The notes beneath the pieces were generated by a model that had not been told where the DNA came from, did no database searches, and worked only from the letters and a program-made list of their open reading frames with translations. Below are positions 189 through 64,000 of a stretch of 64,000 nt of DNA, one piece after another; position 1 is the stretch's first letter, and each line of letters opens with the position of its first letter. Location: contig JASBUK010000109.1 of assembly GCA_030147925.1 (NCBI GenBank), forward strand, positions 1-64,000, read 5' to 3'. The position numbers and the translations under genes were made by a program. This DNA comes from Trueperaceae bacterium. Its GTDB lineage: Bacteria; Deinococcota; Deinococci; Deinococcales; Trueperaceae.

Positions 189-1295
189 GTGCCCAGCTCG
201 CTTTATTTGCATGTGCCTTTTTGTCCCAAAGTCTGCCCCTATTGTGACTTTCATAAGATGCGCCGTCACGAAGGCTTGGTGGCCGGCTATCTAAAAAAGC
301 TCGAGCAAGACATTCCCGCACTTTACGCCGACTATCCTGGCCCACTAAAAACCATTTATTTCGGCGGCGGTACTCCCTCGCAACTCAGTAATAAAGAACT
401 GGCGCGGATTATCGGGGCTTTGGCGGCAAGCTGGGGTTGGCCTGCTAGCCTAGAAACCACCTTGGAAGCCGACCCCAAAACCTTTGATAAATCCCGCCTT
501 GAGACCTTTAGAGAACTGGGTTTTACACGCTTGTCAATCGGCCTGCAATCTACCCAGGATAAGGTGCTGGCGTTTTTAGGGCGACAACACAGTGGCAGCG
601 AGGGCTTAAGGGCGGTAGAGATGGCTCTAGAAGCCGGTTTTGAGGTATCCGCCGATCTTATTACCGCCGTGCCGGGGCAAGACACGGCTAAGGATTTAGA
701 GCAACTGGTGGCCACGGGTGTTAAGCATCTCGGCGTTTATAACCTGACTATCGAACCTTATACGCCCTTTGCACGGCGCGGTATTCGCGTAGACGAAAAT
801 AAAGATGTCGCTGACTATCTGCTTACCAGCGAAACCTTGATCAAACACGGTTTTGTGCGCTATGAGGTTTCAAATTACGCCAAAGCAGGACACGAATCAC
901 AGCACAATCAGGTCTACTGGCATGGTGAGTATTTTTTGGCCCTCGGCCCTTCGGCTGCCGACTTTGTGCCGGTAGCTGACGCAATCGGCGAGCGGCGCAG
1001 CAACCGTATGATCAAAGACTGGCTTAAAGGTGCAGCGCCGGAAGTACTTAAAATCGGTCCGCGGGAATATATCGAAGACCTGCTGATGACCGGGCTGCGC
1101 ACCCGCCACGGTGTAGATATTGAGGCAGTAAAACAGAAAACTGGTCTAGACATCTTTAAGTTGTACCACCCTCTGATAAAGCGCTACGAAGAACAGGGCT
1201 GGCTTAAGCCCAGTAATCAGTTCTTGCGCGTAAGTGATGCGGGCTTATTAAAACTAAACGGCATCTTGCAGGGCTTTTTTAACGCCAGGGTTTGA
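189..1295 (+). CDS. hemW: HemW-type radical SAM heme chaperone
   Basis: Radical SAM protein of the HemW family (long annotated as oxygen-independent coproporphyrinogen oxidase), thought to deliver heme to membrane cytochromes. The cluster-binding motif is Cys12-x3-Cys16-x2-Cys19 within HVPFCPKVCPYCDFH. A glycine-rich SAM segment (YFGGGTPS) and the HemW-type motif GQDT followed by YNLTIEPYTPF are present. The length of 368 residues is normal for HemW and shorter than HemN. The start is GTG at 189; no strong Shine-Dalgarno (SD) sequence precedes it, but a TATAAG box supplied by an inverted-repeat element lies just upstream. A role in heme trafficking is family knowledge; separation from HemN rests on length and the CPYCDF motif. 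Confidence 0.88.
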   Translation: MPSSLYLHVPFCPKVCPYCDFHKMRRHEGLVAGYLKKLEQDIPALYADYPGPLKTIYFGGGTPSQLSNKELARIIGALAASWGWPASLETTLEADPKTFDKSRLETFRELGFTRLSIGLQSTQDKVLAFLGRQHSGSEGLRAVEMALEAGFEVSADLITAVPGQDTAKDLEQLVATGVKHLGVYNLTIEPYTPFARRGIRVDENKDVADYLLTSETLIKHGFVRYEVSNYAKAGHESQHNQVYWHGEYFLALGPSAADFVPVADAIGERRSNRMIKDWLKGAAPEVLKIGPREYIEDLLMTGLRTRHGVDIEAVKQKTGLDIFKLYHPLIKRYEEQGWLKPSNQFLRVSDAGLLKLNGILQGFFNARV

Positions 1296-1313
1296 TAAAC
1301 AAAGCAGCAAATC

Positions 1314-1357
1314 TTGACAAATTAAGTTTTTAACTTTATAGTTGGAATCGATTCCAA
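1314..1357 (+). promoter_or_regulatory. Promoter and LacI-type palindromic operator
   Basis: TTGACA at 1314-1319 and TATAGT at 1337-1342 are spaced by 17 bases, a good sigma-70 promoter. It abuts TTGGAATCGATTCCAA (1342-1357), a perfect 16-bp palindrome with a central CG, the form typical of LacI-family operators. It sits at the transcription start of the lacI-like gene, so repression would be autoregulatory and would cover any co-transcribed downstream genes. No second copy was seen before the binding-protein gene. Confidence 0.85.
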
Positions 1358-1376
1358 AAATGAATAGGAAATCCAG

Positions 1377-2396
1377 ATGGATTCAAAGAGATACACAATT
1401 CAAGATATAGCCCGTGAGGCCAAAGTTGGCGTGGGTACAGTGTCTCGAGTCCTAAATAACGACCCCAATGTAAAAGAAGCAACCCGGCTTAAGGTCAAGC
1501 AAGTCATCAAACGCTTAGGTTATCAACCCAGTTTTACCGCCCGCAGTTTGCGCACTCAAAAGTCACAAACTATTGGTTTTATTGCCGATAACGTGGCCAC
1601 TACCCCCTTTGCCGTCAACCTTATCAAAGGCGCCCAAGATGCCGCCAGGCGGCATGGTAAACTCCTGTTAATTGTAGACGCTGGCAATGATCCACAACTC
1701 CGTGAACGCGCTCTTAAGAGCATGCTCGAGCGCGAAGTCGAAGGCATTGTTTACGCTGCTATGTTTCACCAGGAGGTTGTGCTATCAGCAGAGTTTAGAT
1801 CTGTCCCCACAGTTTTGGTTGACTGCTACACCAGAGATAAAAGTCATCCTTCAAGCGTACCTGATGAAGTGCAAGGTGGCAAAGATGCCACTGAAGAGCT
1901 CATTAAAAACAAGCACAAACGCATTGCTATTATTCTCAATTCCGAGCTAAGCTCGCCCCATCCTGCCGCTAAGGGCCGCTACCAGGGTTATTGCGAGGCT
2001 CTAGAAGAAGCAAACATCGAGCTGGATCCCAAGCTTGTCCGCACAGGCGATGGCGACTCGGCACTGAGCTTTAAGATAACGCTCGAGCTTATGAGCTTAG
2101 CCAAGCCACCCACCGCGATTTTTTGCTGTACCGACCGCATGGCTATGGGCACATACGACGCTCTCAAAAGCTTGGGCCTCAGCATTCCCCAAGATGTATC
2201 GATTATTGGCTTTGATAATCAAGAAGTGATCGCAGAACAATTGCATCCACCCTTATCCACCATGGCCCTGCCCCACGAAAAAATGGGGCGTTGGTCTATT
2301 GACTACTTGCTGGATAAGTCACAGACATCAACTGAACAGCACGTTTTTCCCTGTCCTTTGATTAAAAGGGCGTCCATTAAGGATTTAGGGGCATGA
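1377..2396 (+). CDS. LacI-family transcriptional regulator of the sugar operon
   Basis: The N-terminal helix-turn-helix is classic for the family (YTIQDIAREAKVGVGTVSRV, residues about 6-25), followed by the hinge region (RLGYQPSFTARSLRT) and a periplasmic-binding-protein-like effector domain with FCCTDRMAMG and SIIGFDN motifs. The length of 339 residues is normal. It is first in line with a binding protein, two permeases and a glycosidase on the same strand, so it most likely represses sugar uptake and releases DNA when the imported sugar binds. The palindrome at 1342-1357 just upstream is its probable operator. The effector sugar cannot be read from the sequence. Confidence 0.92.
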   Translation: MDSKRYTIQDIAREAKVGVGTVSRVLNNDPNVKEATRLKVKQVIKRLGYQPSFTARSLRTQKSQTIGFIADNVATTPFAVNLIKGAQDAARRHGKLLLIVDAGNDPQLRERALKSMLEREVEGIVYAAMFHQEVVLSAEFRSVPTVLVDCYTRDKSHPSSVPDEVQGGKDATEELIKNKHKRIAIILNSELSSPHPAAKGRYQGYCEALEEANIELDPKLVRTGDGDSALSFKITLELMSLAKPPTAIFCCTDRMAMGTYDALKSLGLSIPQDVSIIGFDNQEVIAEQLHPPLSTMALPHEKMGRWSIDYLLDKSQTSTEQHVFPCPLIKRASIKDLGA

Positions 2397-3762: not shown

Positions 3763-3784
3763 AGTTCAAACTTGAACATATAGC

Positions 3785-3810: not shown

Positions 3811-3849
3811 TTATTAAAAAATATTTAATCTCATTACTCTTTATCCACA

Positions 3850-6001: not shown

Positions 6002-6978
6002 TGGGCTTAAAACTAGCAGATAAATGGCTTTGGGATTTCTGGTTTGTGCGTGAACGTGAAAACTACCATGTCTTTTACTTACAAGCCCCAAATTCGCTCG
6101 AGCACGAATCACAACGGCATTTCAACGTCTCTATTGGTCACGCGGTCTCGCCGGATTTAAGAAACTGGAAAGTACTGCCTGACGCCCTGCAACCAAGCGA
6201 TGCTAACAGTCAAGCGCTCGATAACTACACCACCTGGACCGGCAGCATTATTGAGCATGAGGGCTTATGGCACATGCTCTACACGGGCTCGAGCCACGCC
6301 GAGAACGGGCTTGTGCAAAGAATTTTCTTAGCGACCTCCAAAGATTTACTAAACTGGGAAAAACACGGCCAGCCGGTGATTGAAGCCGACCCAAGATGGT
6401 ACGAAAAGCTCGATCTTGATGTCTGGTTTGACGAAGCCTGGCGTGATCCTTGGGTGTTTAAAGATGAAACTGGACTTTTTCACGCCCTTATTACTGCCAG
6501 GGCCAAAGACGGCCCCGCCGATGCCCGAGGCGTGATTGCTCAGGCTAGTTCAAAAGATTTAATAAATTGGGAAGTTATGCCACCTGTTACGGAAACCGGG
6601 GAATTTGGCTATCTGGAAGTTCCGCAAATTATTGAATTAAATGGACTTTACTACCTGCTTTTTTCCGTAACTAAAGATATTTTTTCAGATAACCGTAAAA
6701 AGAGATCAGAGCTTGAAACAGGCACGCATTATCTGCTAGCAGATAATCCCCTTGGGCCTTACAAACTTAGCCGGGATAAGTTTATGGCGGGCGATGAGCA
6801 CGGCAGCCTTTACTCGGGCAAGCTCATTAAAAACCCGCAAGGTGACTGGATGTTTATGGCGTTTAAGAACTTTACCCCCACAGGTGAGTTTATCGGTGAA
6901 CTCAGCGATCCTTACCTGGTCTTGCTTGACCAGGAGGGTAACTTGAGCCTTGGCTTGCCAGAATTGGCTGAGGTTTAA
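6001..6978 (+). CDS. Beta-propeller glycosidase, GH32/GH68/GH43-like
   Basis: A 325-residue protein without signal peptide, so cytoplasmic. It carries the landmarks of five-bladed beta-propeller glycosidases: an early WDFWF with Asp12 (candidate nucleophile), WTGS (residues 79-82), the Arg148-Asp149-Pro150 motif in WRDPWVF, and Glu206 in LEVPQ as candidate acid. RDP and WTGS-like motifs point to beta-fructosidases (clan GH-J), but the usual NDPNG motif and C-terminal beta-sandwich are missing, so a divergent subfamily is possible. As the last gene of the transporter operon it probably cleaves the imported oligosaccharide. Family assignment is good; substrate is inference. Confidence 0.75.
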   Translation: MGLKLADKWLWDFWFVRERENYHVFYLQAPNSLEHESQRHFNVSIGHAVSPDLRNWKVLPDALQPSDANSQALDNYTTWTGSIIEHEGLWHMLYTGSSHAENGLVQRIFLATSKDLLNWEKHGQPVIEADPRWYEKLDLDVWFDEAWRDPWVFKDETGLFHALITARAKDGPADARGVIAQASSKDLINWEVMPPVTETGEFGYLEVPQIIELNGLYYLLFSVTKDIFSDNRKKRSELETGTHYLLADNPLGPYKLSRDKFMAGDEHGSLYSGKLIKNPQGDWMFMAFKNFTPTGEFIGELSDPYLVLLDQEGNLSLGLPELAEV

Positions 6979-7264: not shown

Positions 7265-10200
7265 TTAAACCGCCTTGGCCTGTCTGGCCTTATAAGCAAT
7301 CTGCAAAAGCAGTCTCGCCAGCACGCCGCCGCTGGCCAAACTCAGGCTGTCATTTTCCTTAATTTCAGTGAGTGCTTGATCGTAGCGTTCAAGCAGGCGC
7401 GGATGTTCGGCTAAAAAAGCTTCCGGGCTTAAGGCGTCGTTGGCCTTACGGGCCTTGCAGTATTCCGCTCCTAGCTGGCGCTGTGCCCGGCGCAAATCCA
7501 TAATCAGGCCACCCAAGGCAATTTTCTCCCATTTGTCTTCATGAGCGTGCTCGAGCAAATTGTCACGCAGCCAGCCCAGCTCGAGCCTTTCACCCAGTGC
7601 ATAAAACGAAGTTCCGGCTTCTTCTAAGCTCACCTCGGCAATACGACTGACATCAATCACGCCAACTCCGCTAGGCAGATAATCCAAGCTGGCAATCTCC
7701 TGAGCCAATTCCACCGGTACGCCACTGTGGCTAAAGGCCTCAAAGCCCAGTTCGTAGCGGTTGCGCTCGCCTGTCGGCAACAAATCCTTAAGCTCCCGGC
7801 GCAACTGCGCTAAGGGCTCGCAATAGGCCGCCACGAAATCAGCTACCGGTTCGACCTTGAGGTCATTTAGCAAAATCCAGTTGACAATGCCCTCAACCGC
7901 ACGAACCAGGTCGTCAAGAGCATTGTACTGCGTCCGGGTGGAAATCTGCTGATCGAGCGCAAAAATGCGTTCCAAAAAGGGTCCCACCGCCAGGATCTCC
8001 AGCGCGACCAGCGCCGCCCGGATCACTTCTACGGGGCTTGCGCCGGTATCGCGGATACCGCGGTGGACAAAAGTGATGCCGAGCAAATCCACTACCTTAT
8101 TGGTGAATTGCGTGGCAATAATTTCCCGACGCAAAGGGTGATTTTTTATGGTCTCCGGGAAGCGCTCTTGCAAAACCTTGGGAAAGTAATCGAAAAGATA
8201 GTGCTGGAAATAAGGTTTGTTGGGAAAGTCGGTCTCTAGTAAACGGCGATAGATACCCATCTTGGTATAGGCCAGCAAAATGGCCAGCTCGGGTCGTGAC
8301 AAACCCTCACCTGCCCGGTGGCGATCTTCATAATCCTTGTGTCCGGGTAAATATTCTACTTTTGGCTTTAAGTCTCCACGACTCCGGTGATAGTCCTGGA
8401 GCGATTCAAACAGCAAGACGTCTTCACAACTACGGCGCTCGGCCAGCGAGAGACAGAGCGACTGCATGTAGTTATCACTTAGAACCAGCTTACTCACATC
8501 ATCGGTCATCTCCTTGAGTAGACGGTTGCGCTGCACAAAAGACAAGTCGCCACTGCTTAAAAGCGGCTGTAAGAGAATCTTGATATTAACCTCATGGTCG
8601 GACATATCCACACCGGCTGAATTGTCAATGGCATCGGTGTTGATGCGCCCACCGGCTCGAGCATAGTCGATGCGGGCAAGCTGGGTGAGGCCTAAGTTGC
8701 CACCTTCACCCACCACCTGCGCCTGTAAGTCATCGGCATCAATGCGCACCTCATCATTGTTTGAGTCACCCACGTCGGTGTTGCGCTCATGAGCAGATTT
8801 GACATAAGTGCCGATGCCGCCATTCCACAACAGGTCAACCGGCATCTTCAAAACGGCCTTTATCAAGTCCTGACCGCTTAAAGCCTCGTCACTAACGCCC
8901 AACATGGCCTTTAGTTGCGCACTTAAGGGAATAGATTTGGCATGTCGGGAATAAATACCACCCCCCTTGCTGATGAGCTTTTTGTTGTAATCCTCCCAGC
9001 TCGAGCGGGGCAGCTCAAAGAGCCGCTTTCTTTCCTTAAAGCTCTTTTCTAAGTCGGGGTCGGGGTCAAGAAATATATGCAGATGGTTAAAAGCCGCCTG
9101 CAACTTGATCTTGCGGCTGTATAGCATGCCGTTACCAAAGACATCGCCCGACATATCGCCAATAGCGACAACCGTAAAACTCTGCTCCATGACATCGATG
9201 CCGATTTCCCGAAAATGCCGCGCCACGCATTCCCAGGCGCCCCGGGCGGTGATGCCTTCTTTCTTATGGTCATAGCCATAAGAACCCCCAGAAGCAAAAG
9301 CGTCACCTAACCAAAAGTCATACTCGGCAGCCGTTTCGTTGGCCAAATCACTGAAGGTGGCCGTACCTTTATCTGCTGCTACTACCAGATAGGGATCGGG
9401 GTCGTCATAGACGACCAAGCCCTGCGGCTGCACCGTCTGACCGTCTTTTATGTTATCGGTTAAGTCGAGCAAACCGCGAATAAAACTGGTGTATTGCTGC
9501 TTGACATAATCTCTTAAGGACTCACGTTCAGTGGGCGCGTTTTTGATCACAAAACCGCCTTTAGAACCCACCGGTACGATGACGGCATTTTTGGTCATTT
9601 GCGTCTTCATCAGACCCAGCACTTCGGTGCGAAAGTCATCCGGGCGGTCACTCCAGCGGATGCCACCACGCGCCACCTTGCCTCCACGCAAATGTGTACC
9701 CTCAACACCCGGCCCGGTAACAGCAATCTCGTAAACCGGTTTGGGTTCAGGCATACCTATTACCGTACCCGAATCGAGCTTAAAGGAGATAATATCTTTA
9801 TCCAGGAAAAAATTGCTGCGCACCGTGGCGTCGATTAAGTTAAGTAGACCGCGCAAAGAACTATCTCCCGGCAAAGAGGACACCTGACTAAGGCTCTCTA
9901 AAAACCGCTCTTTGATCTGCTGCAACTGCTGCTCGCGGACCTTTTCCGGCGGCAAGTCCGGAGCGAACTTTGCGGCGAAGTAGCTGTAAAGAAGACCGGC
10001 AACCCGGGGGTGTTTGAGCAGGGTGTCATTAATAAAGCGACGGCTGGTCACCGCGCTTAACTGCGCGTAGTACATCTGGTAGCCGCGCAAGAGCGCCACC
10101 TGTCGAATGCTGAGCTCGCCATAAAGCACCAGGCGGTTTAAGCGATCATTTTCGGCGTTGCCAAGTAGCAAGGCCTCTAAGGCTTCGACCAATCTTGCTC

Positions 10201-21106: not shown

Positions 21107-21487
21107 ATGAAAGCCATCGTTTCTAGCAATAAAGCCCCCGCCGCTATCGGTCCTTATTCACAGGCTGTTCGCGCCAATAACATGCTTTTTAGCTCTGGGC
21201 AAATCCCCTTAAAACCCGATGGGGAATTGGTCGAACGAGAAATTAAAGCGCAAACCCGGCAAGTGCTGCTTAACTTATCAGCCGTGTTAGAAGCAGGTGG
21301 CTCGAGCCTTGATAACGTCGTTAAATGCACCTGCTTTTTACAGGACATGAATCACTTTGACCAGATGAATGGGGTCTATGCAGAATTTTTTGGAGATGCG
21401 CCCCCGGCAAGAAGCGCCGTCGAAGTGGCTCGCTTACCCAAAGACGTTCTGATTGAAATTGAGGCGATTGCGCTTATTGACAGCTAG
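21107..21487 (+). CDS. ridA: RidA family enamine/imine deaminase
   Basis: Hydrolyses reactive 2-aminoacrylate and related enamines formed by PLP enzymes. The 126-residue sequence has [15 protein letters not shown], the substrate-binding Arg102 in [13 protein letters not shown] and Glu118 in IEIEAIA. GGGAGG precedes ATG 21107. The stop overlaps the convergent exchanger gene by four bases. It probably follows the phosphatase gene on one transcript. Confidence 0.95.
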
Positions 21488-51579: not shown

Positions 51580-54411
51580 TTAGAAGTTAACCGTGTAGGA
51601 AATCGAGAAGGACTGGCCACCGGTGGTGCTTACACCATTGTTGCTGTTGTAAGCGCCATAGGCGAACTCGAGGTCGTAGTAGTTCCAGACCACTTCGTAA
51701 CCGTCACCACTCTGGGTGAGACCGTTGTTCTCATCACCAGCGGAGATATCCGTGGCACTGTCACCAGCACCGTTGGTATTGGTGTCATCCTGGATGTTCG
51801 TACCAGTCCAGCTGGCGTAGCGAACACTCAGGGTGCTGTTGTCAAAGAGGAATTCGTTGAGCACAACGCCAACGCCCCACTGGAGCTCACTAGCGGTGTA
51901 GGTGTCTGCATCGCTGTGATCAGTGTTGCGGTAGTTCACGTTAGCAACCAGGCTAGGCATGGTGAAGATATTGAGAGGAGTCGTTTCAAGACCAGTACCA
52001 AACTTGAGGGTCACGGTATCGTCGGTGCCAGCATCACTGTCGTTGACATTCTCGTAGCTAGCGTAAGGGGTCAGCGTGAGGATAGAAACGCTCAGCTCAT
52101 AGTCAGCTTCGGCCAAGATGGTGGTTTCACTGTAGTCAGCTTCCATTTGCTTGTACTCGAAGTTGAGGTTGAGGTTATCAATCAGGGCGTTATCAGCAGC
52201 ACCGTCATGGGCAAGACCCACACCAAAGCCGGTTTCATAGTTGGTGTTGCGGTTCATACCGGCAACCACAAGGGCTTCATTTGCATCAATACCACTGCTG
52301 AGATCGTCAACAACCGTACCGTTAACGGAAGCTTGGTTAAAGAAACCACTGAGGGCAAAGCCTGCAAAGAGATCGGCAGAAACATCTACACCAAAGGCAC
52401 TGGCACTGTCTCCAGCATCCACGCTGTAGCTGTCAAAGTAGGCGTTTATGTCGAGGATAAAGAGGCCAAGACCAGCATTGACGCCAAAACCATTCTGATC
52501 AAGTTCCCAAGGATAGTCACCGGAATCTTCAAAGATGCCTTCCCAGGCAACCGGCATGCTGCGGTAGTTAGCAGAGAGGCTGTTTAAGATCGGCAACGAG
52601 GCAGCGTCTACATCAAGTTCAACATAGAACAGCGAGCTGTCAGAACCAAGCACAGCACTGGTGGGTGCAGGCGTGGTGATAGTGCCGCTGCTGCTGGCGT
52701 ATTCAGCATTGAGCGTAAAGATGCTCATGCTTATGCTACCGTCAACACCCCAAACAGTAATGGTTTGGTTGTCAGCTGCTGCGTCGGCATTTTCGCGGGC
52801 ATAGGCAGAGAGTTGCGCGAACGAGCCACCCAGCGAAACGCCCTCTAAGGGGTTAAGAGTGAGGCGGGCACCACGGTAGTAGGTGTCAGCAAGATCATCG
52901 TCGTTTTCGGGATCAGTGTCACCATCTTGATCGACAGCACTATTTAGATCTGCATCTACTTCACCGTAAGCAATGGTCAGGGTAGGAGCAAGGAAGGCCA
53001 GGAAGTCAGGACCACCAGCAGTAGCTACGAAACCATCACCGTTAGATGCAAAGACATAGGGGGTGAAAGAAGCACTTGGGTCTTCACCGAATTGGAAGGT
53101 GAGCGGTGCAGCACCGATAGGATCAAAGGTGGTGGTGAAATCTGAGACTCTGAAAACGTAACCGTCAAAGGGGCTACTGCCATTGTTCAAGCCAACGGCT
53201 TTTTCCATATCGAGTTCGATAACCGTTGAGAAGGTGTTTAAGGCATTGGGGTCACCGGTGCCATCACGCTGAGTGTTAAAGGCAATGTTGAGCGTAAGAC
53301 CAACACCAGTTTCGCCTTCGACAAAGTCAATGTCTTGACGATCCTGGGCAACTTCACCAACGTCAGTGCTGTCACCATCACCATTGAGGTTACTAGAACC
53401 AGTGCTAAACGCCGAGGCGTCAAGTTCGCGGTCCATGCCAACACCAAAGAGGCGGTCAACATCAAAAGGAACTTCGGCGCCGCTCAAGCGACCTACTTCG
53501 TAGCTGAGGCTGATGCTACCAGAGACGATCAACAGGTTGTCTTCGACTTCGGTTAAGCGGGCTTCTAAGTCAGCAATAGCGGCAGCCTGCTCTTCGTCAG
53601 CGGCTTCTAAGCCAGCAACGCGGTCGCGCAAGGCAACCTGGTCACGGCGCAGCAAGATGACGAATTCGCGGATGTTGGCGATATCGCTGGCATTGCGGGC
53701 GACACCACTTAGAAGATCAGGATCAATATCAACTCCACCAAGACCAGCAACTGCGTCCTGTAAAGCGGTAACGTCCTGGTTGAGCAAAGCAACCAGATCG
53801 TTAAGGGCTTTAACGCCAGCGGCATTGCGTTCGATGCGGGCATCAAGAGCGCTTACTTGATCAAGAGCATCGTTGGCGAGAGCTTCGGCAGCTTCGGCTC
53901 GAGCCTGAGCGGTATCCACAGCAACGCGCAACGAGGCGAGTTGGTTTTGCAGATCGCGCAGTACAGCCGGATCGATGCCACCAGCGTTGGCAATCGCTTC
54001 TTCTAAGGCTTCGATGCGAGCCGTGTTGGCTACGACATCATCGGCAATAGTAGCGACAGCGGCTTCGGCAGCCGATAGACGAACGCCCTGGGCGGCAACG
54101 TCAGAGGCAAGCTCTTGCAAGGCGTTGCGCAACGAGGCGATGTCTTCGTCGCTCATGGCTTTGGCAGCCGCAATGTTGCTGTTGACAACATCAAGAAGGC
54201 GGCTGATAACTAGGGCCGCCTGGTAGCGCGTGAAGCTTTCGTTGCCACGGAAGGTGCCATCGGGGAAACCGATAACAATACCTAGATCCGCGATGCGCGA
54301 AACAGCGTCACCCGCCCAGTGGCCCGCAGGGATGTCCGGGAAGGCCGGAGCTTGGGCAAAGGCACCATTCACCATAAAGACGGCAAGAATGGCAATGAGT
54401 AGTTTTTTCAT
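51580..54411 (-). CDS. slpA: SLH-domain outer-membrane anchor and porin (SlpA-type)
   Basis: A 943-residue envelope protein of the SlpA/OmpM type, tethering the outer membrane to the cell wall. The signal peptide ends at VNGAFAQ. One SLH domain (PAFPDIPAGHWAGDAVSRIA and GFPDGTFRGNESFTRYQAAL, residues about 22-75) binds a wall polymer. Residues about 80-300 are a coiled coil rich in heptads (IARNASDIANIREFVILLRR). The last 620 residues alternate in beta-strand pattern and end SISYTVNF, with the terminal Phe used by outer-membrane assembly machinery. GC and codon use are even, as in highly expressed genes. The region upstream holds a strong promoter and a long leader. Confidence 0.95.
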   Translation of the reverse strand: MKKLLIAILAVFMVNGAFAQAPAFPDIPAGHWAGDAVSRIADLGIVIGFPDGTFRGNESFTRYQAALVISRLLDVVNSNIAAAKAMSDEDIASLRNALQELASDVAAQGVRLSAAEAAVATIADDVVANTARIEALEEAIANAGGIDPAVLRDLQNQLASLRVAVDTAQARAEAAEALANDALDQVSALDARIERNAAGVKALNDLVALLNQDVTALQDAVAGLGGVDIDPDLLSGVARNASDIANIREFVILLRRDQVALRDRVAGLEAADEEQAAAIADLEARLTEVEDNLLIVSGSISLSYEVGRLSGAEVPFDVDRLFGVGMDRELDASAFSTGSSNLNGDGDSTDVGEVAQDRQDIDFVEGETGVGLTLNIAFNTQRDGTGDPNALNTFSTVIELDMEKAVGLNNGSSPFDGYVFRVSDFTTTFDPIGAAPLTFQFGEDPSASFTPYVFASNGDGFVATAGGPDFLAFLAPTLTIAYGEVDADLNSAVDQDGDTDPENDDDLADTYYRGARLTLNPLEGVSLGGSFAQLSAYARENADAAADNQTITVWGVDGSISMSIFTLNAEYASSSGTITTPAPTSAVLGSDSSLFYVELDVDAASLPILNSLSANYRSMPVAWEGIFEDSGDYPWELDQNGFGVNAGLGLFILDINAYFDSYSVDAGDSASAFGVDVSADLFAGFALSGFFNQASVNGTVVDDLSSGIDANEALVVAGMNRNTNYETGFGVGLAHDGAADNALIDNLNLNFEYKQMEADYSETTILAEADYELSVSILTLTPYASYENVNDSDAGTDDTVTLKFGTGLETTPLNIFTMPSLVANVNYRNTDHSDADTYTASELQWGVGVVLNEFLFDNSTLSVRYASWTGTNIQDDTNTNGAGDSATDISAGDENNGLTQSGDGYEVVWNYYDLEFAYGAYNSNNGVSTTGGQSFSISYTVNF

Positions 54412-54789: not shown

Positions 54790-55662
54790 ATGGCTCATAT
54801 CACGGTAGCAGCAGCAGAGGCAATCATCGATCAGGGATTCAAGGTGTTGGACCAGGGCTTTGTGCGCTTGGTTGACTATTTGGGTGGTGACGCCCGCATC
54901 GTGCAAGCGGCGCGCGTTTCCTATGGCGAGGGCACCAAAACACTGCGCGAAGACAAAGCGCTTATTGACTATTTGCTGCGCCAGCGGCACACCAGCCCCT
55001 TCGAGCAGGTCATTTTTACCTTTCACGTCAAAATGCCCATCTTTGTGGCCAGGCAGTGGATCAGACACCGTACCGCACGCCTAAATGAAATTTCGGGTCG
55101 CTACAGTGTGATGCGTGACGAATTTTATCTACCCAGCCCTAAGGAGCTGCGCTATCAGTCTAAACGCAGTAAGCAGGGTCGCAGCGAGGAGAGTATCCCG
55201 GCAGATTTACAAGAAAAGATCATAGCGCTGCTAAAACAGGACCAGGGAGATGTCTACGGGCACTATCAGGAGCTTTTGGAAGATGGCCTGGCCAGGGAGC
55301 TGGCCCGCATCAACCTGCCACTGAGCCTTTATACCGAAATGTACTGGCAGATTGACTTAAACAACCTCTTTCACTTTTTGCGCCTGCGCTTAGACTGGCA
55401 TGCCCAATACGAAATTCGCGCTTACGGCGACGCCATAGCCAAAATCGTGCAGGCCGTAGCGCCTTTGGCTTATGAGGCCTTTGAGGAACATATTTTGCAT
55501 GGCCGTAACTTTTCCCGCAGTGAAATTGCTGCACTAAAGCAGGCACTGGACCCTAAAAAGCTGGCCGAGGCTATTGCCGAAAGCGGCATGCGCAAGAGCA
55601 GACAAGCAGAGTTTTTAGCCAAGCTCGAGCTTAATGCCCCAACCCCAGAAACGGAAAGCTAG
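54790..55662 (+). CDS. thyX: Flavin-dependent thymidylate synthase
   Basis: Makes dTMP from dUMP with FAD and methylenetetrahydrofolate. The ThyX signature is complete: WIRHRTARLNEISGRYS. The N-terminus has the VRLVDYLGGDARIVQAARVSYG segment typical of longer ThyX proteins, and HLRLRLDWHAQYEIR-like FLRLRLDWHAQYEIRAYG lies near the C-terminal third. I place the start at ATG 54790 (MAHITVAAAEAI), not at GTG 54769. The 290-residue protein is followed by rlmH after three bases. Confidence 0.96.
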   Translation: MAHITVAAAEAIIDQGFKVLDQGFVRLVDYLGGDARIVQAARVSYGEGTKTLREDKALIDYLLRQRHTSPFEQVIFTFHVKMPIFVARQWIRHRTARLNEISGRYSVMRDEFYLPSPKELRYQSKRSKQGRSEESIPADLQEKIIALLKQDQGDVYGHYQELLEDGLARELARINLPLSLYTEMYWQIDLNNLFHFLRLRLDWHAQYEIRAYGDAIAKIVQAVAPLAYEAFEEHILHGRNFSRSEIAALKQALDPKKLAEAIAESGMRKSRQAEFLAKLELNAPTPETES

Positions 55663-55665: not shown

Positions 55666-56124
55666 TTGCGCTACAGCGTCATAGCCATAGGCGGTCTAAA
55701 GCGGGGTTTTTACCAAGAGGGCTGTCAGCACTTTTTAGGACGTTTATCGGCCTATGCCAAAATTGAGCTGCTCGAGCTCAAAGAAGGCAAGGGGCGAACC
55801 CCCGAACAGGTCAAAGAACAAGAGGGCAAGGCCCTGCTAAAAGCAGCGGACGGCTATTTGATTTGCCTGGATGAAAAAGGTCGGCAGCTAGGTTCAGAGC
55901 AACTGGCAAGCAAGATAAGCCTGCTGGAAAACCGCGCCATCAGCCACATAAGCCTGCTAATCGGCGGCGCCGAAGGTTTGAGCGAAACGGTAAAAAAAGC
56001 CGTCAGCGATTCCTGGAGCCTATCAAAGCTGACCCTGCCACACGAACTGGCTCGCTTGTTGCTGCTCGAGCAACTTTATCGCGCCGAGACGATTCGTGCG
56101 GGGCATCCTTATCATCGAGAATAA
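55666..56124 (+). CDS. rlmH: 23S rRNA pseudouridine-1915 N3-methyltransferase
   Basis: A 152-residue SPOUT methyltransferase that modifies helix 69 of 23S rRNA. The knotted SAM site is LLIGGAEGLSETVKKA and the C-terminus reads LSKLTLPHELARLLLLEQLYRAETIRAGHPYHRE, the RlmH signature with the terminal YH. The start is TTG 55666, three bases after the thyX stop and within the same transcript. The YFQEG-like YQEGCQHFLGRL is also normal for the family. Confidence 0.96.
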   Translation: MRYSVIAIGGLKRGFYQEGCQHFLGRLSAYAKIELLELKEGKGRTPEQVKEQEGKALLKAADGYLICLDEKGRQLGSEQLASKISLLENRAISHISLLIGGAEGLSETVKKAVSDSWSLSKLTLPHELARLLLLEQLYRAETIRAGHPYHRE

Positions 56125-56167: not shown

Positions 56168-56476
56168 TTATGGTGTTGGGGGACGGTAAACTGCCACCTC
56201 TTGCTCGAGCATAGAACCTAGTGCTTCCTCTGCCCGCTCGAGCTCATAACGACCCTGAAGATTCATCCAAAACTGCGGCTCAACGCCAAAAAATCGCCCG
56301 AGTCGCAAAGCTGTATCTGCGGTAATGGCGCGTTTACCGCGCACAATCTCACTAATGCGTATCTGCGGAACGTTGATGGCTTTGGCAAGTTGATATTGTG
56401 AGATGTGCATTGGCACTAGAAATTCTTCCAGCAAAATTTCGCCCGGATGAATCGGAGAGATGTCCCGTTTGTTCAT
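56168..56476 (-). CDS. higA: HigA-type antitoxin (XRE helix-turn-helix)
   Basis: A 102-residue antitoxin of the HigA/VapI family. MNKRDISPIHPGEILLEEFLVPMHISQYQLAKAINVPQIRISEIVRGKRAIT is the standard N-terminus, with the helix-turn-helix at about residues 25-48, and RLGRFFGVEPQFWMNLQGRYELE completes the fold. ATG 56476 follows GGGAGG; the frame is open for 21 more codons into the toxin gene without a signal. It neutralises the toxin encoded just upstream and should repress the pair by binding the promoter. Confidence 0.95.
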   Translation of the reverse strand: MNKRDISPIHPGEILLEEFLVPMHISQYQLAKAINVPQIRISEIVRGKRAITADTALRLGRFFGVEPQFWMNLQGRYELERAEEALGSMLEQEVAVYRPPTP

Positions 56477-57358: not shown

Positions 57359-57960
57359 TCCGCAAAGGAAAACGCCGCGTAAAGACTCAACAGATCACTC
57401 GACAGGCTCTCAAGCACGCCCAATGCCGTAGGCTCAACGTTGCGATTAGAAAGCAGCATATGATGCTCGCCTAGTAAAAACGTCGGCGTGACGTTGCGTT
57501 TACAAAGAGCACGCAGTAGCGCGTCTTTTACCGCACGATTCAGCAGACGGCTGGCTGCCGCTTCACGGGCATAGACGGTAACCTGCTCTGCAAACTCCGG
57601 GTCATCAAGGTCAAGCCGCTGACTGCCCGTAGCCGAAGCGTTTAAGGATTCTAAGGCTTTATGCAGCTTGCGCGAAGCCCGTAAAGACAGTGTCGACAAA
57701 ATCTTACGGCTGCTTAACAAACAGACCGTCACCGTCTGCGGAGTGACGCCTTGTAAGCGCTCCTGGTAATCAAAAAGATAAAGCCGCTCGGTCTCGGCCA
57801 GTTGCAAAGAATATATGGGTCCAACCTGAACATCGGCTTCGAGGTTGAGTAGCCCCCGCAGCATCCTTTCGCTGTCTGCAGCATCGATTAGCTCGAGCTT
57901 TTTTGCCAGCTCGAGCCAATCATCGGCACGGCTAGGGGATTTTGGCCGACGAAAAAACAT
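57355..57960 (-). CDS. Hypothetical soluble protein, 201 residues
   Basis: I do not recognise this family. The sequence has no signal peptide or membrane segment. It has an alpha-helical N-terminus (SPSRADDWLELAKKLELIDA), a central part with alternating strands (QTVTVCLLSSRKIL), and a basic, helical C-terminal half. The context gives no clear function: it ends overlapping the thioredoxin-fold gene (convergent) and is preceded by a repeat. TATACT (57968-57973 on the minus strand) lies seven bases before its ATG, so it is probably transcribed as a leaderless mRNA. Confidence 0.7.
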   Translation of the reverse strand: MFFRRPKSPSRADDWLELAKKLELIDAADSERMLRGLLNLEADVQVGPIYSLQLAETERLYLFDYQERLQGVTPQTVTVCLLSSRKILSTLSLRASRKLHKALESLNASATGSQRLDLDDPEFAEQVTVYAREAAASRLLNRAVKDALLRALCKRNVTPTFLLGEHHMLLSNRNVEPTALGVLESLSSDLLSLYAAFSFAD

Positions 57961-58503: not shown

Positions 58504-59040
58504 TTAAAGCTCTTCAGTGGGTGTCTGCCCGGTCAGCATCAGCTCTCTTAAAGCGTCTTCAACCTGGGCTATATCCGCCGCCAGTTCGTCACGCAACAGC
58601 AGCACTCGTTGCTCGAGCTGCTCTGCTTGCTCACGTCTACGCTCCCCGCCTGCTGCTAAGCCATCAAGCAGAGCGGTTCTGCCCTCTGTTACAGCACTGC
58701 TGAGCTTTTGTTCTGCCGCTTCCAAACGCTCGATAATGTTTTGCTCCAGCGTGGCAAACTCGCTCAAACGCCGCTTTTCTAACTGTCCGCGCAATGTCTC
58801 TAGCTGGCGCTCGAGCTGGGTAATCTGCCGCAGTTGCCCGGCCCGCTCGAGCAAAGAAAGCAGAAAAAACAGCAGGCTGACGACCACAATGAGGCCAAGT
58901 AAAGTCAGTGCCAACGGTATCTCAATACGAAACAGCAAAAAGTTGACCGATAAGCTGGTGACCAAGGCCTGCCAGTTAAAAACCGCAAAAATAGCCGCCA
59001 GCAGAACCACCAGGGTGACCAGCGTTCCCCTTAAACGCAT
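58504..59040 (-). CDS. LapA-domain membrane protein with coiled coil
   Basis: A 178-residue protein with two N-terminal transmembrane helices (TLVTLVVLLAAIFAVFNW and IPLALTLLGLIVVVSLLFFLLSLL) of the LapA/DUF1049 type, followed by a cytoplasmic coiled coil of about 110 residues (ITQLERQLETLRGQLEKRRL). The function is unknown; LapA in E. coli takes part in lipopolysaccharide assembly. AAGGAGG at the start of its ribosome site is joined to the TATAAG of an inverted-repeat element just upstream, which may act as its promoter. Confidence 0.8.
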   Translation of the reverse strand: MRLRGTLVTLVVLLAAIFAVFNWQALVTSLSVNFLLFRIEIPLALTLLGLIVVVSLLFFLLSLLERAGQLRQITQLERQLETLRGQLEKRRLSEFATLEQNIIERLEAAEQKLSSAVTEGRTALLDGLAAGGERRREQAEQLEQRVLLLRDELAADIAQVEDALRELMLTGQTPTEEL

Positions 59041-59964: not shown

Positions 59965-61401
59965 CTACAACACCAGTTTACTACCCGGTTCAATTTTCTG
60001 CGGTAAGTCCAAGCCACTTAAGTCAGCGGGCTCGAGCGCGGTCAAATGGCTCAGCTCAATTATCGCCTCGACCTCACCAGCGGTATTAAAAGGCAGGTCT
60101 ACACCCTGCTGCATCAACCAGCGGGCCGCCCTTTGACTTTGTAGCTGCTTGCTGGTGGCCGGAGAATCGTTACCTTCAGCATTTTTTATGGGTGCAAATT
60201 CCTCTACCCGGTCGGTTTCTAAAATGATGCTTGTTTTGGCGAGGGGTAGAGCGTCAAAAACAAAAGCCTCCAGCTTAATGGCGTTGGGTTTTTCCGGGTC
60301 GATATGAGTGGCGCTAGTTATATCCAAATAGGGCACTTTCTTGCGGGCGCGGTGAAAGGGCAGGGCAAAACGGCCTCCGGCACTCTCGTTGAGCGAACGC
60401 ACAAAATCAACGGCAATCACATGAATGGCAATCGAACCGGCATTGAATTTTAGCGAACCGTCGGCAGCTCGAGCCTCCGCTAATTGAGCGGGCATATCGG
60501 AATACTCGATCACGCCAACGCGACCATCTAATAGGCAAAAATTGCCGACTCTTTCCTGAGCGTGCGCCTTGGGTAGCATCTTCGAGGACATCTGCGCACT
60601 ATCCAGCGCATGCAAGCCGATAAAAAGCGGGTCAACGCATTTAACATTGGGATTATCCACCTGAAAATAGCTAATCTGCTCCACGCCGCGCCGCGCCATG
60701 TCCTCTAGCGCCCCGCTAAGATAAAGTGCCCTGAGGCTGCCGCCGTGTCCATCAGGATTGACTGCCAGCTTATCCTTGTCGGCTAAAAGCAATTTCCCGT
60801 CCAGACCAAGACTGGGCATAGTGCCTTGTGGAAAGAGTGTAACGTTGGCGGGGTCCAAGCCAAAGAACTTGTGTTGCTCAAAAAACTCGCGGCTGGAACC
60901 ATCATTTATAGGGCTGGTCATGATATACCAGGGTATTGTCGCCCGATACTTTTCTTGCGTTTTAAGAATAAACTCGGCAAAGACTTCAAAAAGCGACTTG
61001 CCCTTAATGGGCGTCGCTGGAAAGGTTCCTTTAGGGCCATTCCAGCCAAGACGCGTTCCCTGTCCACCGGCTACGGTAAAAGCCGCCACCTTGCCCTCGG
61101 TAATAAGGGTTTCGCCCAGGGCTCGAGCCTTGCGGTATTTGTCCTGTAAATCTGCTGTTGGCAGCAGCGGATAATAAGGCGCCGGTTGAATATCTTGCGC
61201 CAGGGTCATTTCGGGCGTATGCAAAACATGAGAGTCAATAAGCTCCATTATTTGCGGCCAATCCTGAGATTCCAATTGTTGCAACAGAGCATCCTGGCGG
61301 TCTGTGCTCAAATCCTCATAAAAGCTGAGCAAGTGCTCTTGTCCATAGCGCTTAAGGGTTTGCTTGACCTGCTGATAGCGTTGATCTGGTGATAGTGTCA
61401 T
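59965..61401 (-). CDS. UDP-N-acetylhexosamine pyrophosphorylase, eukaryote-type (AGX/UDPGP family)
   Basis: A 478-residue UDPGP-family enzyme that makes UDP-GlcNAc or a related UDP-sugar from the sugar-1-phosphate and UTP. The nucleotide motif is TVAGGQGTRLGWNGPKGTFPATPI. NPDGHGGSLRAL, YFQVDNPNVKCVDPLFIG and GVIEYSDM match the eukaryotic UAP1/AGX line rather than bacterial GlmU. The N-terminal helical region (QVKQTLKRYGQEHLLSFYEDL) is also AGX-like. Such homologues occur in some bacteria. A stand-alone GlmU-like beta-helix gene is at 49918, so sugar-nucleotide synthesis may be split between proteins here. Confidence 0.9.
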   Translation of the reverse strand: MTLSPDQRYQQVKQTLKRYGQEHLLSFYEDLSTDRQDALLQQLESQDWPQIMELIDSHVLHTPEMTLAQDIQPAPYYPLLPTADLQDKYRKARALGETLITEGKVAAFTVAGGQGTRLGWNGPKGTFPATPIKGKSLFEVFAEFILKTQEKYRATIPWYIMTSPINDGSSREFFEQHKFFGLDPANVTLFPQGTMPSLGLDGKLLLADKDKLAVNPDGHGGSLRALYLSGALEDMARRGVEQISYFQVDNPNVKCVDPLFIGLHALDSAQMSSKMLPKAHAQERVGNFCLLDGRVGVIEYSDMPAQLAEARAADGSLKFNAGSIAIHVIAVDFVRSLNESAGGRFALPFHRARKKVPYLDITSATHIDPEKPNAIKLEAFVFDALPLAKTSIILETDRVEEFAPIKNAEGNDSPATSKQLQSQRAARWLMQQGVDLPFNTAGEVEAIIELSHLTALEPADLSGLDLPQKIEPGSKLVL

Positions 61402-61852: not shown

Positions 61853-62188
61853 ATGGAATCCTGTATCCCTAAAGCGGAAACGCTCGAGCTCTTACCCGAC
61901 GATCGTCTTTTAGAGGCAACGGTTTTGCTGCTAAAAGGCTTTGGCGATAACACCCGGCTAAAAATTTTGAGCCTGTTAAGGGGCGGGGAAATTTGTGTAC
62001 ACGAGATTGTGGAAGCGCTCAGCATAAGCCAGTCGGCTATCAGCCACCAGTTGCGCATCCTGCGCAATGTCCGGCTGGTAAGCAGCCGCAGGCAAGGCCG
62101 TCACGTCTATTACCGCCTGGCCGACGAACATGTTCTCAATCTATTGGAAAGTGCCTTGTCCCACGGCGCCGAGGCCTTTAACGGCTAA
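61853..62188 (+). CDS. ArsR/SmtB-family metal-sensing repressor
   Basis: A 111-residue winged-helix repressor. I take ATG 61853 as start; the frame is open upstream through repeat sequence. GFGDNTRLKILSLLRGGEICVHEIVEAL and SQSAISHQLRILRNVRLVSSRRQGRHVYYRL are the family core. The C-terminal helix carries Asp91-x-His93-x10-His104-x2-Glu107, exactly the alpha-5 zinc site of SmtB/CzrA, while the ELCVCD arsenic-type site is replaced by EICVHE. It should therefore sense Zn, Co or Ni. No metal transporter gene is adjacent. The mRNA is probably leaderless. Confidence 0.92.
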   Translation: MESCIPKAETLELLPDDRLLEATVLLLKGFGDNTRLKILSLLRGGEICVHEIVEALSISQSAISHQLRILRNVRLVSSRRQGRHVYYRLADEHVLNLLESALSHGAEAFNG

Positions 62189-62472
62189 TCGTCGAGTAAG
62201 CGCGTCGGCACTACTCCCGGCGGGTTCGATACCGCATGGCGCGCTTCAGCCCAGGCTTCTTTGATAGCCTGCTCTTCGGGGCTCAGATAATCGCTTTTGC
62301 TGTCGGCGTATTTCTCCACCTCTTCGGCCTTGGCCTTGAGCAGATTGTTAAGCACGACATGCAGCGAATCGCGCACGGCCAGTCCTTCGCGCAAAAGGTC
62401 CTGCATTTCCAGCACCCTGTTTACCAGATCAGCATGTGACATCTGCTCGAGCTCTGCTTTTGTGCGCTGCAC
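62185..62472 (-). CDS. Small hydrophilic protein, 95 residues
   Basis: I do not recognise this protein. It is highly charged and helical (AELEQMSHADLVNRVLEMQDLLREGL, residues about 6-31) with an acidic middle (KAEEVEKYADSKSDYLSPEEQ) and a proline-containing end. There is no signal peptide or membrane segment. The codon composition agrees with neighbours, so I consider it a real gene. A GGAGG-type sequence (AAGGAGGCAGCC) precedes ATG 62472. Its end overlaps the convergent ArsR gene by four bases. It lies downstream of the Na/Pi cotransporter gene on the same strand. Confidence 0.65.
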   Translation of the reverse strand: MQRTKAELEQMSHADLVNRVLEMQDLLREGLAVRDSLHVVLNNLLKAKAEEVEKYADSKSDYLSPEEQAIKEAWAEARHAVSNPPGVVPTRLLDD

Positions 62473-62552
62473 GGCTGCCTCCTTATACTCCGACTTCTTG
62501 CCGTCAGTTTAATCAACATCATTTTATTACAAGCACTGCTTAGCCAATACTC

Positions 62553-64000
62553 CTATGCCGCTTGTGCAACCTCCATGTCTCCCTCTTCTTTATCGGGGTC
62601 TGTGCTCATCTCGACGATAACCTTGGCGATGCGCTTGGCAAAGTAGTAGAGGCGTTTTAGATATTCGTTCATATCGGTCTCCAAGCGGAACAGCGCCAAA
62701 CGACCAGCCTCATCAGCCACCAGCCGACGCGCCAAATGACCGTCCACTTCATCGGTCAAACGGTTTATCTCGTCTTTTGCAACAATCACTTCTTGGGCCA
62801 TAGCCTTATCGGCACTCAAAACGGCTGTTAGCGTGTGCTTAAGCGCCCAGCAAACCTTATCATGCAGTCTTACAAGCACTTCCTGGGTGAGCACGCTTAT
62901 CTGTACGTTGTGTTTAAACCGATCCCTGCCCGCATCGACTATATTGGTTTCGATGGTGTCGCCAATGTTTTCCAGATAGTTGGCTACCGCCATATAGTCA
63001 TAGAGCTGTTCCGATTGCCCCTTAAACAAATTTTCCTGAGAAAGCTTGCCCAGATAGGTCACGATTGCGCCTTGCAAAGCGTCTACGTCATCATCCATGT
63101 CGGCGAGTTTTTGCAAATCGGCTTCGCTGCCCTGAATCGCTGTAGGCAACGACTTTTGCACCATACGCAAAACGTATTCGCCAAGTCTACCCAGCTCGAG
63201 CCGGACGCGATCAAGAGCCAATGGCGGTGTTTCTAAGAGCATGTCATCTAGGTATTTTGGCTCTACGGAAACTACCCCGACCTCGGGGCGTTCGGGGATG
63301 ATGCGATTTAACAACCACACCAGTGGGGTGATAAACCAGAGAAAGATAAAGGTGTTGACCACATTAAACAGCGTGTGGGCGTTAGCAATCTGACGTGGTG
63401 TTTCCGCTGCCAGTCGGGCAGTGCCGCTGAGCCCTTCGGCCACCGGGGAAATTGCCCGCACCATAAAGGCAAGCTGGTCGATAAAAGCATACCAGAGCAG
63501 CACACCCACCACTTTGGTAAGTACGTGCGCCAAAGCAGCCCGCACCGCTTCGGGGGGTTTACCAATCGCGGCCAAGATGGCGGTGACGCTGGTGCCGATA
63601 TTGGCACCAAAGGTAAGGGCAATGCCTGCTTCTAAGTTGATAAAGCCCTGGCTAGCCAACACGATGATGATGCCGATAGCCGCCGAAGAACTCTGAATCA
63701 GGGCGGTAAAAAACGCCCCGACGAGGATGCCAAACAGTGGCCGACTCATTTGCTGCATCAGCTCGATAAAAGGCTGATAGCTTCTTAGTGGGCGGGTGGC
63801 CTCACTCATCAGTTCCATGCCAAAAAAGATCAGCCCCAAGCCCAAAAGCATCACGCCATATTGCCGCCAGCGTTCCTGCCTGATGAAAAAGGCCATGGTA
63901 AAACCAACGGCAATCATAATCAGGGCGTATCTGGTGATCTTAAAGGCGATGATTTGTGCGGTGATGGTAGTGCCGATGTCCGCACCCAAAATCACCCCCA
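62553..64000 (-). CDS. Na/Pi cotransporter with PhoU-like domain, N-terminus outside the window
   Basis: Sodium-phosphate symporter of the NptA/YjbB family, at least 480 residues and continuing past the right edge. The two inverted transport repeats are GADIGTTITAQ at the very beginning of the visible part and GANIGTSVTAILAAIG, with LIQSSSAAIGIIIVLASQG between; the QSSS motif is the phosphate and sodium site. After five or more helices, the C-terminal 220 residues are a helical PhoU-like domain (YMAVANYLENIGDTIETNIV). It would import phosphate. GTG 63995 is not the true start, since helices before the first repeat are missing. Confidence 0.9.
   Translation of the reverse strand, partial: GVILGADIGTTITAQIIAFKITRYALIMIAVGFTMAFFIRQERWRQYGVMLLGLGLIFFGMELMSEATRPLRSYQPFIELMQQMSRPLFGILVGAFFTALIQSSSAAIGIIIVLASQGFINLEAGIALTFGANIGTSVTAILAAIGKPPEAVRAALAHVLTKVVGVLLWYAFIDQLAFMVRAISPVAEGLSGTARLAAETPRQIANAHTLFNVVNTFIFLWFITPLVWLLNRIIPERPEVGVVSVEPKYLDDMLLETPPLALDRVRLELGRLGEYVLRMVQKSLPTAIQGSEADLQKLADMDDDVDALQGAIVTYLGKLSQENLFKGQSEQLYDYMAVANYLENIGDTIETNIVDAGRDRFKHNVQISVLTQEVLVRLHDKVCWALKHTLTAVLSADKAMAQEVIVAKDEINRLTDEVDGHLARRLVADEAGRLALFRLETDMNEYLKRLYYFAKRIAKVIVEMSTDPDKEEGDMEVAQAA

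What the first reader, a model, noticed from the sequence alone, without database searches (positions are those of the whole stretch)
299..63200. A HIP1-like palindrome: GCTCGAGC about 70 times in 64 kb
Reading the whole window I counted about 70 copies of GCTCGAGC (for example 1726, 6098, 13095, 13111, 30584, 30840, 35893 and 35899 overlapping, 56065, 58845). Chance predicts about one. They lie almost only in genes, on both strands and in all three frames: as Leu-Glu (CTC GAG) and, notably, as Ala-Arg-Ala (GCT CGA GCC), which uses the otherwise uncommon CGA codon, for example in threonine aldolase and aroE. Single-base variants (ACTCGAGC, CCTCGAGC, GCTCGAGG) are far rarer. None lies in the intergenic repeats. 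This parallels the cyanobacterial HIP1 octamer GCGATCGC and suggests selection or a mutational process at the DNA level, such as methylation, repair, chromosome organisation or uptake.
Basis: partly seen in the sequence, partly recalled or inferred. Interest (0 to 1): 0.85.

Follow-up and report, generated by a model that had tools for sequence, protein, structure and literature searches.

The report
HIP1-like iterated palindrome in Deinococcota
A bacterium of the Truepera family has scattered the eight-letter DNA palindrome GCTCGAGC about 2,600 times through its genome, roughly thirty times more often than expected, much as cyanobacteria do with a different palindrome; relatives that do the same usually carry a DNA-methylating enzyme that seems to read the core of that word, so a 30-year-old puzzle can be tested in a second phylum.

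Summary
Confirmed and extended. The window holds 71 copies of GCTCGAGC (chance 1-2); the 2.98-Mb genome holds 2,625, against 136 for the reversed word. Shuffling synonymous codons gives 15 copies where 347 are seen, and all three frames and intergenic DNA are enriched, so codon or codon-pair usage cannot explain it. Leu-Glu is written CTCGAG in 90% of cases when flanked by G and C, but in 1% without either flank. The word is iterated across much of the same order of Deinococcota, either as the octamer or, in two unnamed families, as the bare hexamer CTCGAG at 5-8 per kb. No C5 or N6/N4 (PF01555) methyltransferase was found in the genome. It has one solitary Eco57I/BseCI-type adenine methyltransferase ("A1", beside dnaG), present in most enriched Trueperaceae. 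All 18 Meiothermus genomes carry either A1 (14) or a PaeR7I-type (CTCGAG) methyltransferase (4), never both. This is a HIP-type system in a second phylum, most likely maintained through CTCGAG methylation coupled to a repair or strand-choice step. A1's specificity is inferred, the driving step is unproven, and some strongly enriched genomes lack both enzymes. New variant of a known kind.

The parts
299..306 (.). GCTCGAGC
1724..1731 (.). GCTCGAGC
2081..2088 (.). GCTCGAGC
6096..6103 (.). GCTCGAGC
6287..6294 (.). GCTCGAGC
7549..7556 (.). GCTCGAGC
7579..7586 (.). GCTCGAGC
8655..8662 (.). GCTCGAGC
8999..9006 (.). GCTCGAGC
10312..10319 (.). GCTCGAGC
10600..10607 (.). GCTCGAGC
10900..10907 (.). GCTCGAGC
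11725..11732 (.). GCTCGAGC
11830..11837 (.). GCTCGAGC
13047..13054 (.). GCTCGAGC
13095..13102 (.). GCTCGAGC
13113..13120 (.). GCTCGAGC
15285..15292 (.). GCTCGAGC
15693..15700 (.). GCTCGAGC
18669..18676 (.). GCTCGAGC
19683..19690 (.). GCTCGAGC
19755..19762 (.). GCTCGAGC
21300..21307 (.). GCTCGAGC
23377..23384 (.). GCTCGAGC
23764..23771 (.). GCTCGAGC
24624..24631 (.). GCTCGAGC
25837..25844 (.). GCTCGAGC
28742..28749 (.). GCTCGAGC
29842..29849 (.). GCTCGAGC
30582..30589 (.). GCTCGAGC
30840..30847 (.). GCTCGAGC
31079..31086 (.). GCTCGAGC
31487..31494 (.). GCTCGAGC
34125..34132 (.). GCTCGAGC
34425..34432 (.). GCTCGAGC
34934..34941 (.). GCTCGAGC
35145..35152 (.). GCTCGAGC
35891..35898 (.). GCTCGAGC (overlaps the next copy)
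35897..35904 (.). GCTCGAGC (overlaps the previous copy)
36037..36044 (.). GCTCGAGC
39660..39667 (.). GCTCGAGC
40430..40437 (.). GCTCGAGC
41579..41586 (.). GCTCGAGC
42046..42053 (.). GCTCGAGC
43525..43532 (.). GCTCGAGC
44025..44032 (.). GCTCGAGC
44330..44337 (.). GCTCGAGC
44546..44553 (.). GCTCGAGC
45308..45315 (.). GCTCGAGC
46811..46818 (.). GCTCGAGC
47636..47643 (.). GCTCGAGC
48544..48551 (.). GCTCGAGC
49263..49270 (.). GCTCGAGC
49935..49942 (.). GCTCGAGC
53897..53904 (.). GCTCGAGC
55623..55630 (.). GCTCGAGC
55770..55777 (.). GCTCGAGC
56064..56071 (.). GCTCGAGC
56203..56210 (.). GCTCGAGC
56236..56243 (.). GCTCGAGC
57891..57898 (.). GCTCGAGC
57909..57916 (.). GCTCGAGC
58611..58618 (.). GCTCGAGC
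58809..58816 (.). GCTCGAGC
58845..58852 (.). GCTCGAGC
60030..60037 (.). GCTCGAGC
60467..60474 (.). GCTCGAGC
61121..61128 (.). GCTCGAGC
61882..61889 (.). GCTCGAGC
62445..62452 (.). GCTCGAGC
63194..63201 (.). GCTCGAGC

Best explanation
GCTCGAGC is a highly iterated palindrome of the HIP1 type, created and kept at the DNA level across the whole genome. Shown: the excess, its independence from codon usage, its extension to eight bases, and its conservation between relatives. Inferred: the solitary N6-adenine methyltransferase A1 (outside the window, on contig C57 beside dnaG) methylates the core CTCGAG. Inferred and least certain: a post-replicative repair or strand-choice step that senses the methylated site in a G...C context resolves mismatches in favour of GCTCGAGC, so sites accumulate to about one per kilobase and are then protected. 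The octamer context is shared by genomes with different methyltransferases, so the G...C flanks are probably read by a second component and not by the methyltransferase.
For: Genome-wide excess. Synonymous shuffle 14.9 against 347 observed, all phases. P(CTCGAG | Leu-Glu) is 250/279 with both G...C flanks, 34/358 with one, 5/391 with none. CTCGAG outside the octamer is at chance level: 64 copies in 394 kb, where order 2 predicts about 80 for CTCGAG in all. One-off variants at the inner positions are below expectation. CTCGAG is conserved in 24 of 33 sites between G001 and G017, against 22% for other hexamers with four G/C, p=7e-10. The own genome (100% complete) has no PF00145 and no PF01555 gene and one PF02384/PF07669 gene, A1, with no restriction gene beside it. 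A1 was found in 23 of 111 genomes of the order. In Trueperaceae, 11 of 11 genomes with A1, B or C methyltransferases are enriched (ratio at least 1.29) against 3 of 26 without. In Meiothermus, 14 genomes have A1 and the other 4 have B, never both, p=3e-4 without correction for kinship, and all 18 are enriched. A1's best solved relative is M.BseCI, which reads ATCGAT, the same TCGA centre (own knowledge). Some genomes with distant A1-like restriction-modification systems avoid CTCGAG.
Against: Methylation was not observed. A1's specificity is inferred, and among its closest relatives outside the phylum CAGCTG is more depleted than CTCGAG. G008 and the families f5 and f2 (g24) are strongly enriched without A1 or a full B match, although G008 is 92% complete and f5/f2 carry other methyltransferases. 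The methyltransferase-bearing Trueperaceae form mostly one clade, so there are few independent events. Family C occurs in g28 genomes that show no octamer excess. An adenine methyltransferase does not fit Elhai's specific model, which needs methylated C after G. No MutH-like or octamer-reading protein was identified.
Confidence: 0.55

Rival explanations
1. Selection for a function of the octamer itself: it is a binding or recombination site for a chromosomal protein (nucleoid organisation, recombination or repair, replication), needed about once per kilobase; methylation is secondary.
For: Gaps between sites are slightly more regular than random: CV 0.87 against 0.97 (95% range 0.88-1.06). The octamer context is the same in genomes carrying A1 (G000, G001), B (G010) or neither (G008). 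Sites are strongly conserved.
Against: Two unnamed families iterate the bare hexamer at 5-8 per kb regardless of flanks, and within one genus G001 and G017 differ in flank strictness, which is odd for a fixed binding site. No candidate protein was found. The regularity is marginal.
Confidence: 0.25
2. DNA uptake or self-recognition signal in a naturally competent lineage.
For: Iterated words at about 1 per kb are typical of uptake sequences (PMC1939737). Competence is known in Thermus and Deinococcus (own knowledge).
Against: Known uptake sequences are longer and not palindromic, and their one-mismatch forms are also overrepresented; here inner one-off forms fall below expectation. The hexamer regime in f5/f2 is unlike any uptake signal.
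Confidence: 0.07
3. A purely mutational or repair bias independent of methylation, for example short-patch repair that converts near-misses of GCTCGAGC.
For: Inner one-off variants are below expectation, 30-47 observed against 48-75 expected per position. Intergenic DNA is enriched as much as genes. Some enriched genomes lack A1 and B.
Against: The association with A1 or B methyltransferases would be coincidence. The order-2 expectation is itself inflated a little by the octamer.
Confidence: 0.12
4. Codon, codon-pair or dipeptide usage.
For: Most copies encode Leu-Glu.
Against: Synonymous shuffle gives 14.9 against 347; codon choice depends on flanking bases; intergenic copies, 18 against 0.74 expected.
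Confidence: 0.01

Closest known systems
HIP1 (GCGATCGC) of cyanobacteria and its alternates (Elhai 2015, PMC4390886)
   Same: GC-rich octameric palindrome with GC...GC ends, about 1 per kb, in all frames and in non-coding DNA; the core hexamer is not in excess outside the octamer; deviations are fewest at inner positions; a methyltransferase that appears able to read the core is present; related lineages replace the word or the enzyme.
   Different: Different phylum and word (core CTCGAG/TCGA instead of CGATCG/GATC). The candidate enzyme is one N6-adenine methyltransferase, not a C5 CGATCG enzyme plus a GATC enzyme. Some relatives iterate the bare hexamer. HIP1 itself is avoided here (0 against 10.9 expected).
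PaeR7I/XhoI restriction-modification (CTCGAG)
   Same: Same core sequence; PaeR7I-type methyltransferases (family B) occur in Meiothermus, T. radiovictrix and G010.
   Different: No XhoI-family endonuclease in the own genome. Restriction normally leads to avoidance of sites, not iteration.
Orphan CTCGAG methyltransferase of Nocardia (Blow 2016, PMC4752239)
   Same: Orphan methyltransferase with the same hexamer.
   Different: There, sites cluster near the replication origin; genome-wide iteration is not reported in the passages read.
DNA uptake sequences (DUS/USS)
   Same: Short word iterated about once per kilobase.
   Different: Palindromic, shorter, tied to a methyltransferase, and no halo of over-represented near-matches.

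Membership tests
HIP1-type highly iterated palindrome | Octameric palindrome, the most over-represented 8-mer of the genome, 0.5-2.5 per kb | tested here: met
   Top 8-mer; 0.88 per kb genome-wide (2,625 sites), 0.94 per kb with O/E 32 in the 394-kb sample
HIP1-type highly iterated palindrome | Excess independent of reading frame and of codon usage, in non-coding DNA too | tested here: met
HIP1-type highly iterated palindrome | Core hexamer not in excess outside the octamer | tested here: met
   64 CTCGAG outside the octamer in 394 kb, against about 80 expected for CTCGAG in all
HIP1-type highly iterated palindrome | One-off forms avoid changes at inner positions | tested here: met
   Outer 53 observed/38 expected; inner positions 35/48, 30/68 and 47/75
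HIP1-type highly iterated palindrome | Methyltransferase specific for the core is encoded | tested here: inconclusive
   A1 present and solitary; specificity inferred from exclusion with PaeR7I-type B in Meiothermus, not measured
HIP1-type highly iterated palindrome | Second orphan methyltransferase for the inner tetramer (GATC in cyanobacteria; TCGA would be the analogue) | tested here: not met
   Only other hit in the families searched is a D12 methyltransferase next to a NotI-family endonuclease
HIP1 sensu stricto | Sequence GCGATCGC in a cyanobacterium | tested here: not met
   Word is GCTCGAGC; GCGATCGC 0 against 10.9 expected; genome lies in the family of T. radiovictrix
PaeR7I/XhoI restriction-modification | XhoI-family endonuclease gene | tested here: not met
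   No PF04555 match in the own genome
DNA uptake sequence | Preferential uptake of DNA carrying the word | not testable with these tools
   needs a transformation assay

The most novel reading that the evidence does not exclude
HIPs are the footprint of a widespread methyl-directed strand-choice system of bacteria without MutH: any lineage that adopts a solitary palindromic methyltransferase grows an iterated word, and a separate conserved factor reads the GC...GC ends. In Deinococcota the methyltransferase has been swapped (A1, PaeR7I-type B and possibly others) while the octamer stayed.
Probability: 0.25. Interest if true: 0.92.

Novelty: new variant of a known kind. Interest (0 to 1): 0.8.

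Why it matters
HIP1 has been unexplained since 1995, and the study read here (PMC4390886) considers cyanobacteria only, where phylogeny and methyltransferases are confounded. A second phylum with a different word and a different enzyme class is an independent test. It supports a link to methylation, argues that methylated C after G is not required if A1 acts on adenine, and offers culturable species (T. radiovictrix, Meiothermus) and natural experiments (A1 swapped for PaeR7I-type; octamer versus hexamer regimes within one genus) to find the driving step.

Tried and rejected
Maximal-order Markov model: no power, because the 7-mers occur almost only inside the octamer. C5 and N6/N4 (PF01555) methyltransferases as the cause in the own genome: none found. 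Adjacent endonuclease of A1-like systems as proof of CTCGAG specificity: the roughly 250-aa family has no Pfam or NCBIfam match and no significant similarity to a PaeR7I-family enzyme. Site avoidance around A1 relatives: supportive only in part. Residue conservation at octamer sites: mixed, with Leu and Glu less conserved but Ala and Ser more. Viral contigs carrying close pairs of the octamer: mostly GC-rich with unknown hosts, uninformative. Literature: no paper found that names GCTCGAGC as an iterated palindrome; only open-licence papers could be searched.
Full report
OBSERVATION. One to two are expected by chance. The genome (2,982,247 bases, 151 contigs, 100% complete) has 2,625 sites, against 136 for the same word read backwards. 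In 394 kb sampled from it (window plus 21 other stretches) there are 371 copies, 0.94 per kb, 32 times the order-2 expectation.

NOT CODON USAGE. Permuting synonymous codons within each gene, which keeps protein and codon usage, gives 14.9 copies (maximum 22 in 30 runs) against 347 observed. Every phase is enriched: 72 against 2.9, 31 against 3.2, 244 against 8.8. Leu-Glu is written CTCGAG in 250 of 279 cases when the base before is G and the base after is C, in 34 of 358 with one such flank, and in 5 of 391 with neither. Codon choice is therefore set by bases outside the codons. 72 of 115 Ala-Arg-Ala tripeptides are written as the octamer.

ANATOMY. CTCGAG outside the octamer is not in excess: 64 copies in 394 kb, with an expectation of about 80 for CTCGAG in all. 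One-off variants are mildly raised at the outer positions (53 against 38) and lowered at inner ones (30 against 68 at position 3); the expectation is slightly inflated by the octamer itself. Elhai reports the same pattern for HIP1 (PMC4390886). Gaps average 1,027 bases and are a little more regular than random placement (CV 0.87; null 0.97, 95% range 0.88-1.06).

RELATIVES. The window's genome belongs to the family that includes G012, which is Truepera radiovictrix by its genome length of 3,260,398 bases (own knowledge); G056 is Meiothermus ruber by the same reasoning. In 111 genomes of the order, the octamer is strongly in excess in one group of Trueperaceae, in Meiothermus and in families f5 and f2 (g24). 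It is at or below its control in most other Trueperaceae and in the 26 genomes of g20, taken to be Thermus. Two regimes exist. In the octamer regime (own, G008, G010, and less strictly G001 and G009), CTCGAG is used almost only with G...C flanks. In the hexamer regime (f5, and G045/G049 of f2), CTCGAG occurs 5-8 times per kb with any flank. GC-rich genomes without the candidate enzymes show no flank dependence (G007: 0.43, 0.40, 0.53). Between G001 and G017, of one genus, CTCGAG is conserved at 24 of 33 sites, against 22% for other hexamers with four G/C (p=7e-10), the highest of all hexamers with at least 12 occurrences.

THE METHYLTRANSFERASE. Five Pfam methyltransferase families were searched. 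The own genome has no C5 enzyme (PF00145) and no PF01555 enzyme, one D12 enzyme next to a NotI-family endonuclease, and one 558-aa gene, A1 (L002:4471-6147, contig C57), matching N6_Mtase and the M.Eco57I C-terminal domain with motif NPPF. It lies between dnaG and V-ATPase genes with no endonuclease beside it, and the same neighbours recur in relatives. Its nearest solved relative is M.BseCI, an ATCGAT enzyme with the same TCGA centre (own knowledge). A1 occurs in 23 of 111 genomes. In Trueperaceae 11 of 11 genomes with A1, B or C are enriched against 3 of 26 without (p=4e-7); the threshold was chosen after seeing the data, and a glutamate dehydrogenase tree shows that the carriers form mostly one clade, so this p-value overstates the evidence.

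THE BEST INDEPENDENT CLUE. Four of 18 Meiothermus genomes lack A1: G047, G056, G071 and G082. Exactly these four carry full-length family B; none has both and none has neither (p=3e-4 if independent). On a Paracoccus plasmid, B is the partner of a PaeR7I-family endonuclease, which cuts CTCGAG. In T. radiovictrix B stands beside a frame-shifted XhoI homologue, and no XhoI-family gene was found in the four Meiothermus genomes. The simplest reading is that A1 and B do the same job, methylation of CTCGAG, without restriction. A third family, C (PF01555), accompanies XhoI-family genes in G050, G061 and G062.

WEIGHING. Against a simple enzyme-makes-word rule: G008 and families f5/f2 are enriched without A1 or a full B. 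G010 uses B, G008 neither and the own genome A1, yet all share the strict octamer. I take this to mean that the flanks are read by something other than the methyltransferase, although G010 is only 67% and G008 92% complete. Elhai's GmC-dependent mismatch repair needs methyl-C after G; an adenine enzyme would not supply it, so that version is disfavoured here while the wider idea of methylation-guided repair stands. A site function for the octamer itself (rival 1) is not excluded.

LITERATURE. Elhai's survey of HIPs contains no mention of Deinococcus, Thermus or CTCGAG. An orphan CTCGAG methyltransferase is known in Nocardia, with motif clusters near the origin (PMC4752239). No report of GCTCGAGC iteration was found in the open-licence library; closed papers and REBASE could not be searched.

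VERDICT. The iteration is real, DNA-level and HIP-like (near certain). CTCGAG methylation by A1 is likely (about 0.7). That methylation-linked repair makes and keeps the sites is my best but unproven mechanism (0.55).

Noticed in passing
L003:6411-8179 (G000 contig C92): NotI-family endonuclease next to a D12 methyltransferase. The own genome avoids CGGCCG (14 against 146 expected) and GCGGCCGC (1 against 18.9 in the stretches outside the window), so an EagI/NotI-like system seems active. No GCTCGAGC lies in this 1.8-kb pair, as expected for recently acquired DNA. A DPPY-type D12 enzyme is an odd partner for a site without A.
   Followed up: partly
L151-L169 (families f5 and f2 of the same order): CTCGAG occurs 5-8 times per kb whatever its flanks, in genes and between them; 60-90% of Leu-Glu pairs are written CTCGAG. 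This may be an even stronger iteration than the octamer, and the methyltransferase responsible is unknown.
   Followed up: partly
L019:7605-8281 (T. radiovictrix): XhoI/PaeR7I endonuclease homologue split over two frames, directly after an intact PaeR7I-type methyltransferase: a restriction system that has lost its nuclease.
   Followed up: partly
L023:9578-10339, L030:9593-10339, L057:9619-10374 and about 40 other loci: A recurrent gene of about 250 aa beside A1-like methyltransferases in Planctomycetota, Acidobacteria, Proteobacteria and others, with no Pfam or NCBIfam match; looks like an undescribed restriction endonuclease family.
   Followed up: partly
G000, 394-kb sample: HIP1 itself (GCGATCGC) is absent, 0 against 10.9 expected, and CGATCG is depleted (15 against 52). 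GCTTAAGC is mildly over-represented (40 against 21).
   Followed up: no
G001 and G017 (same genus): One is close to the octamer regime and the other to the hexamer regime, although both carry A1: a natural experiment for what sets the flanks.
   Followed up: partly
L015, L016, L020 (G047, G056, G010): PaeR7I-type methyltransferases in genomes where no XhoI-family endonuclease was found, so apparently solitary.
   Followed up: partly
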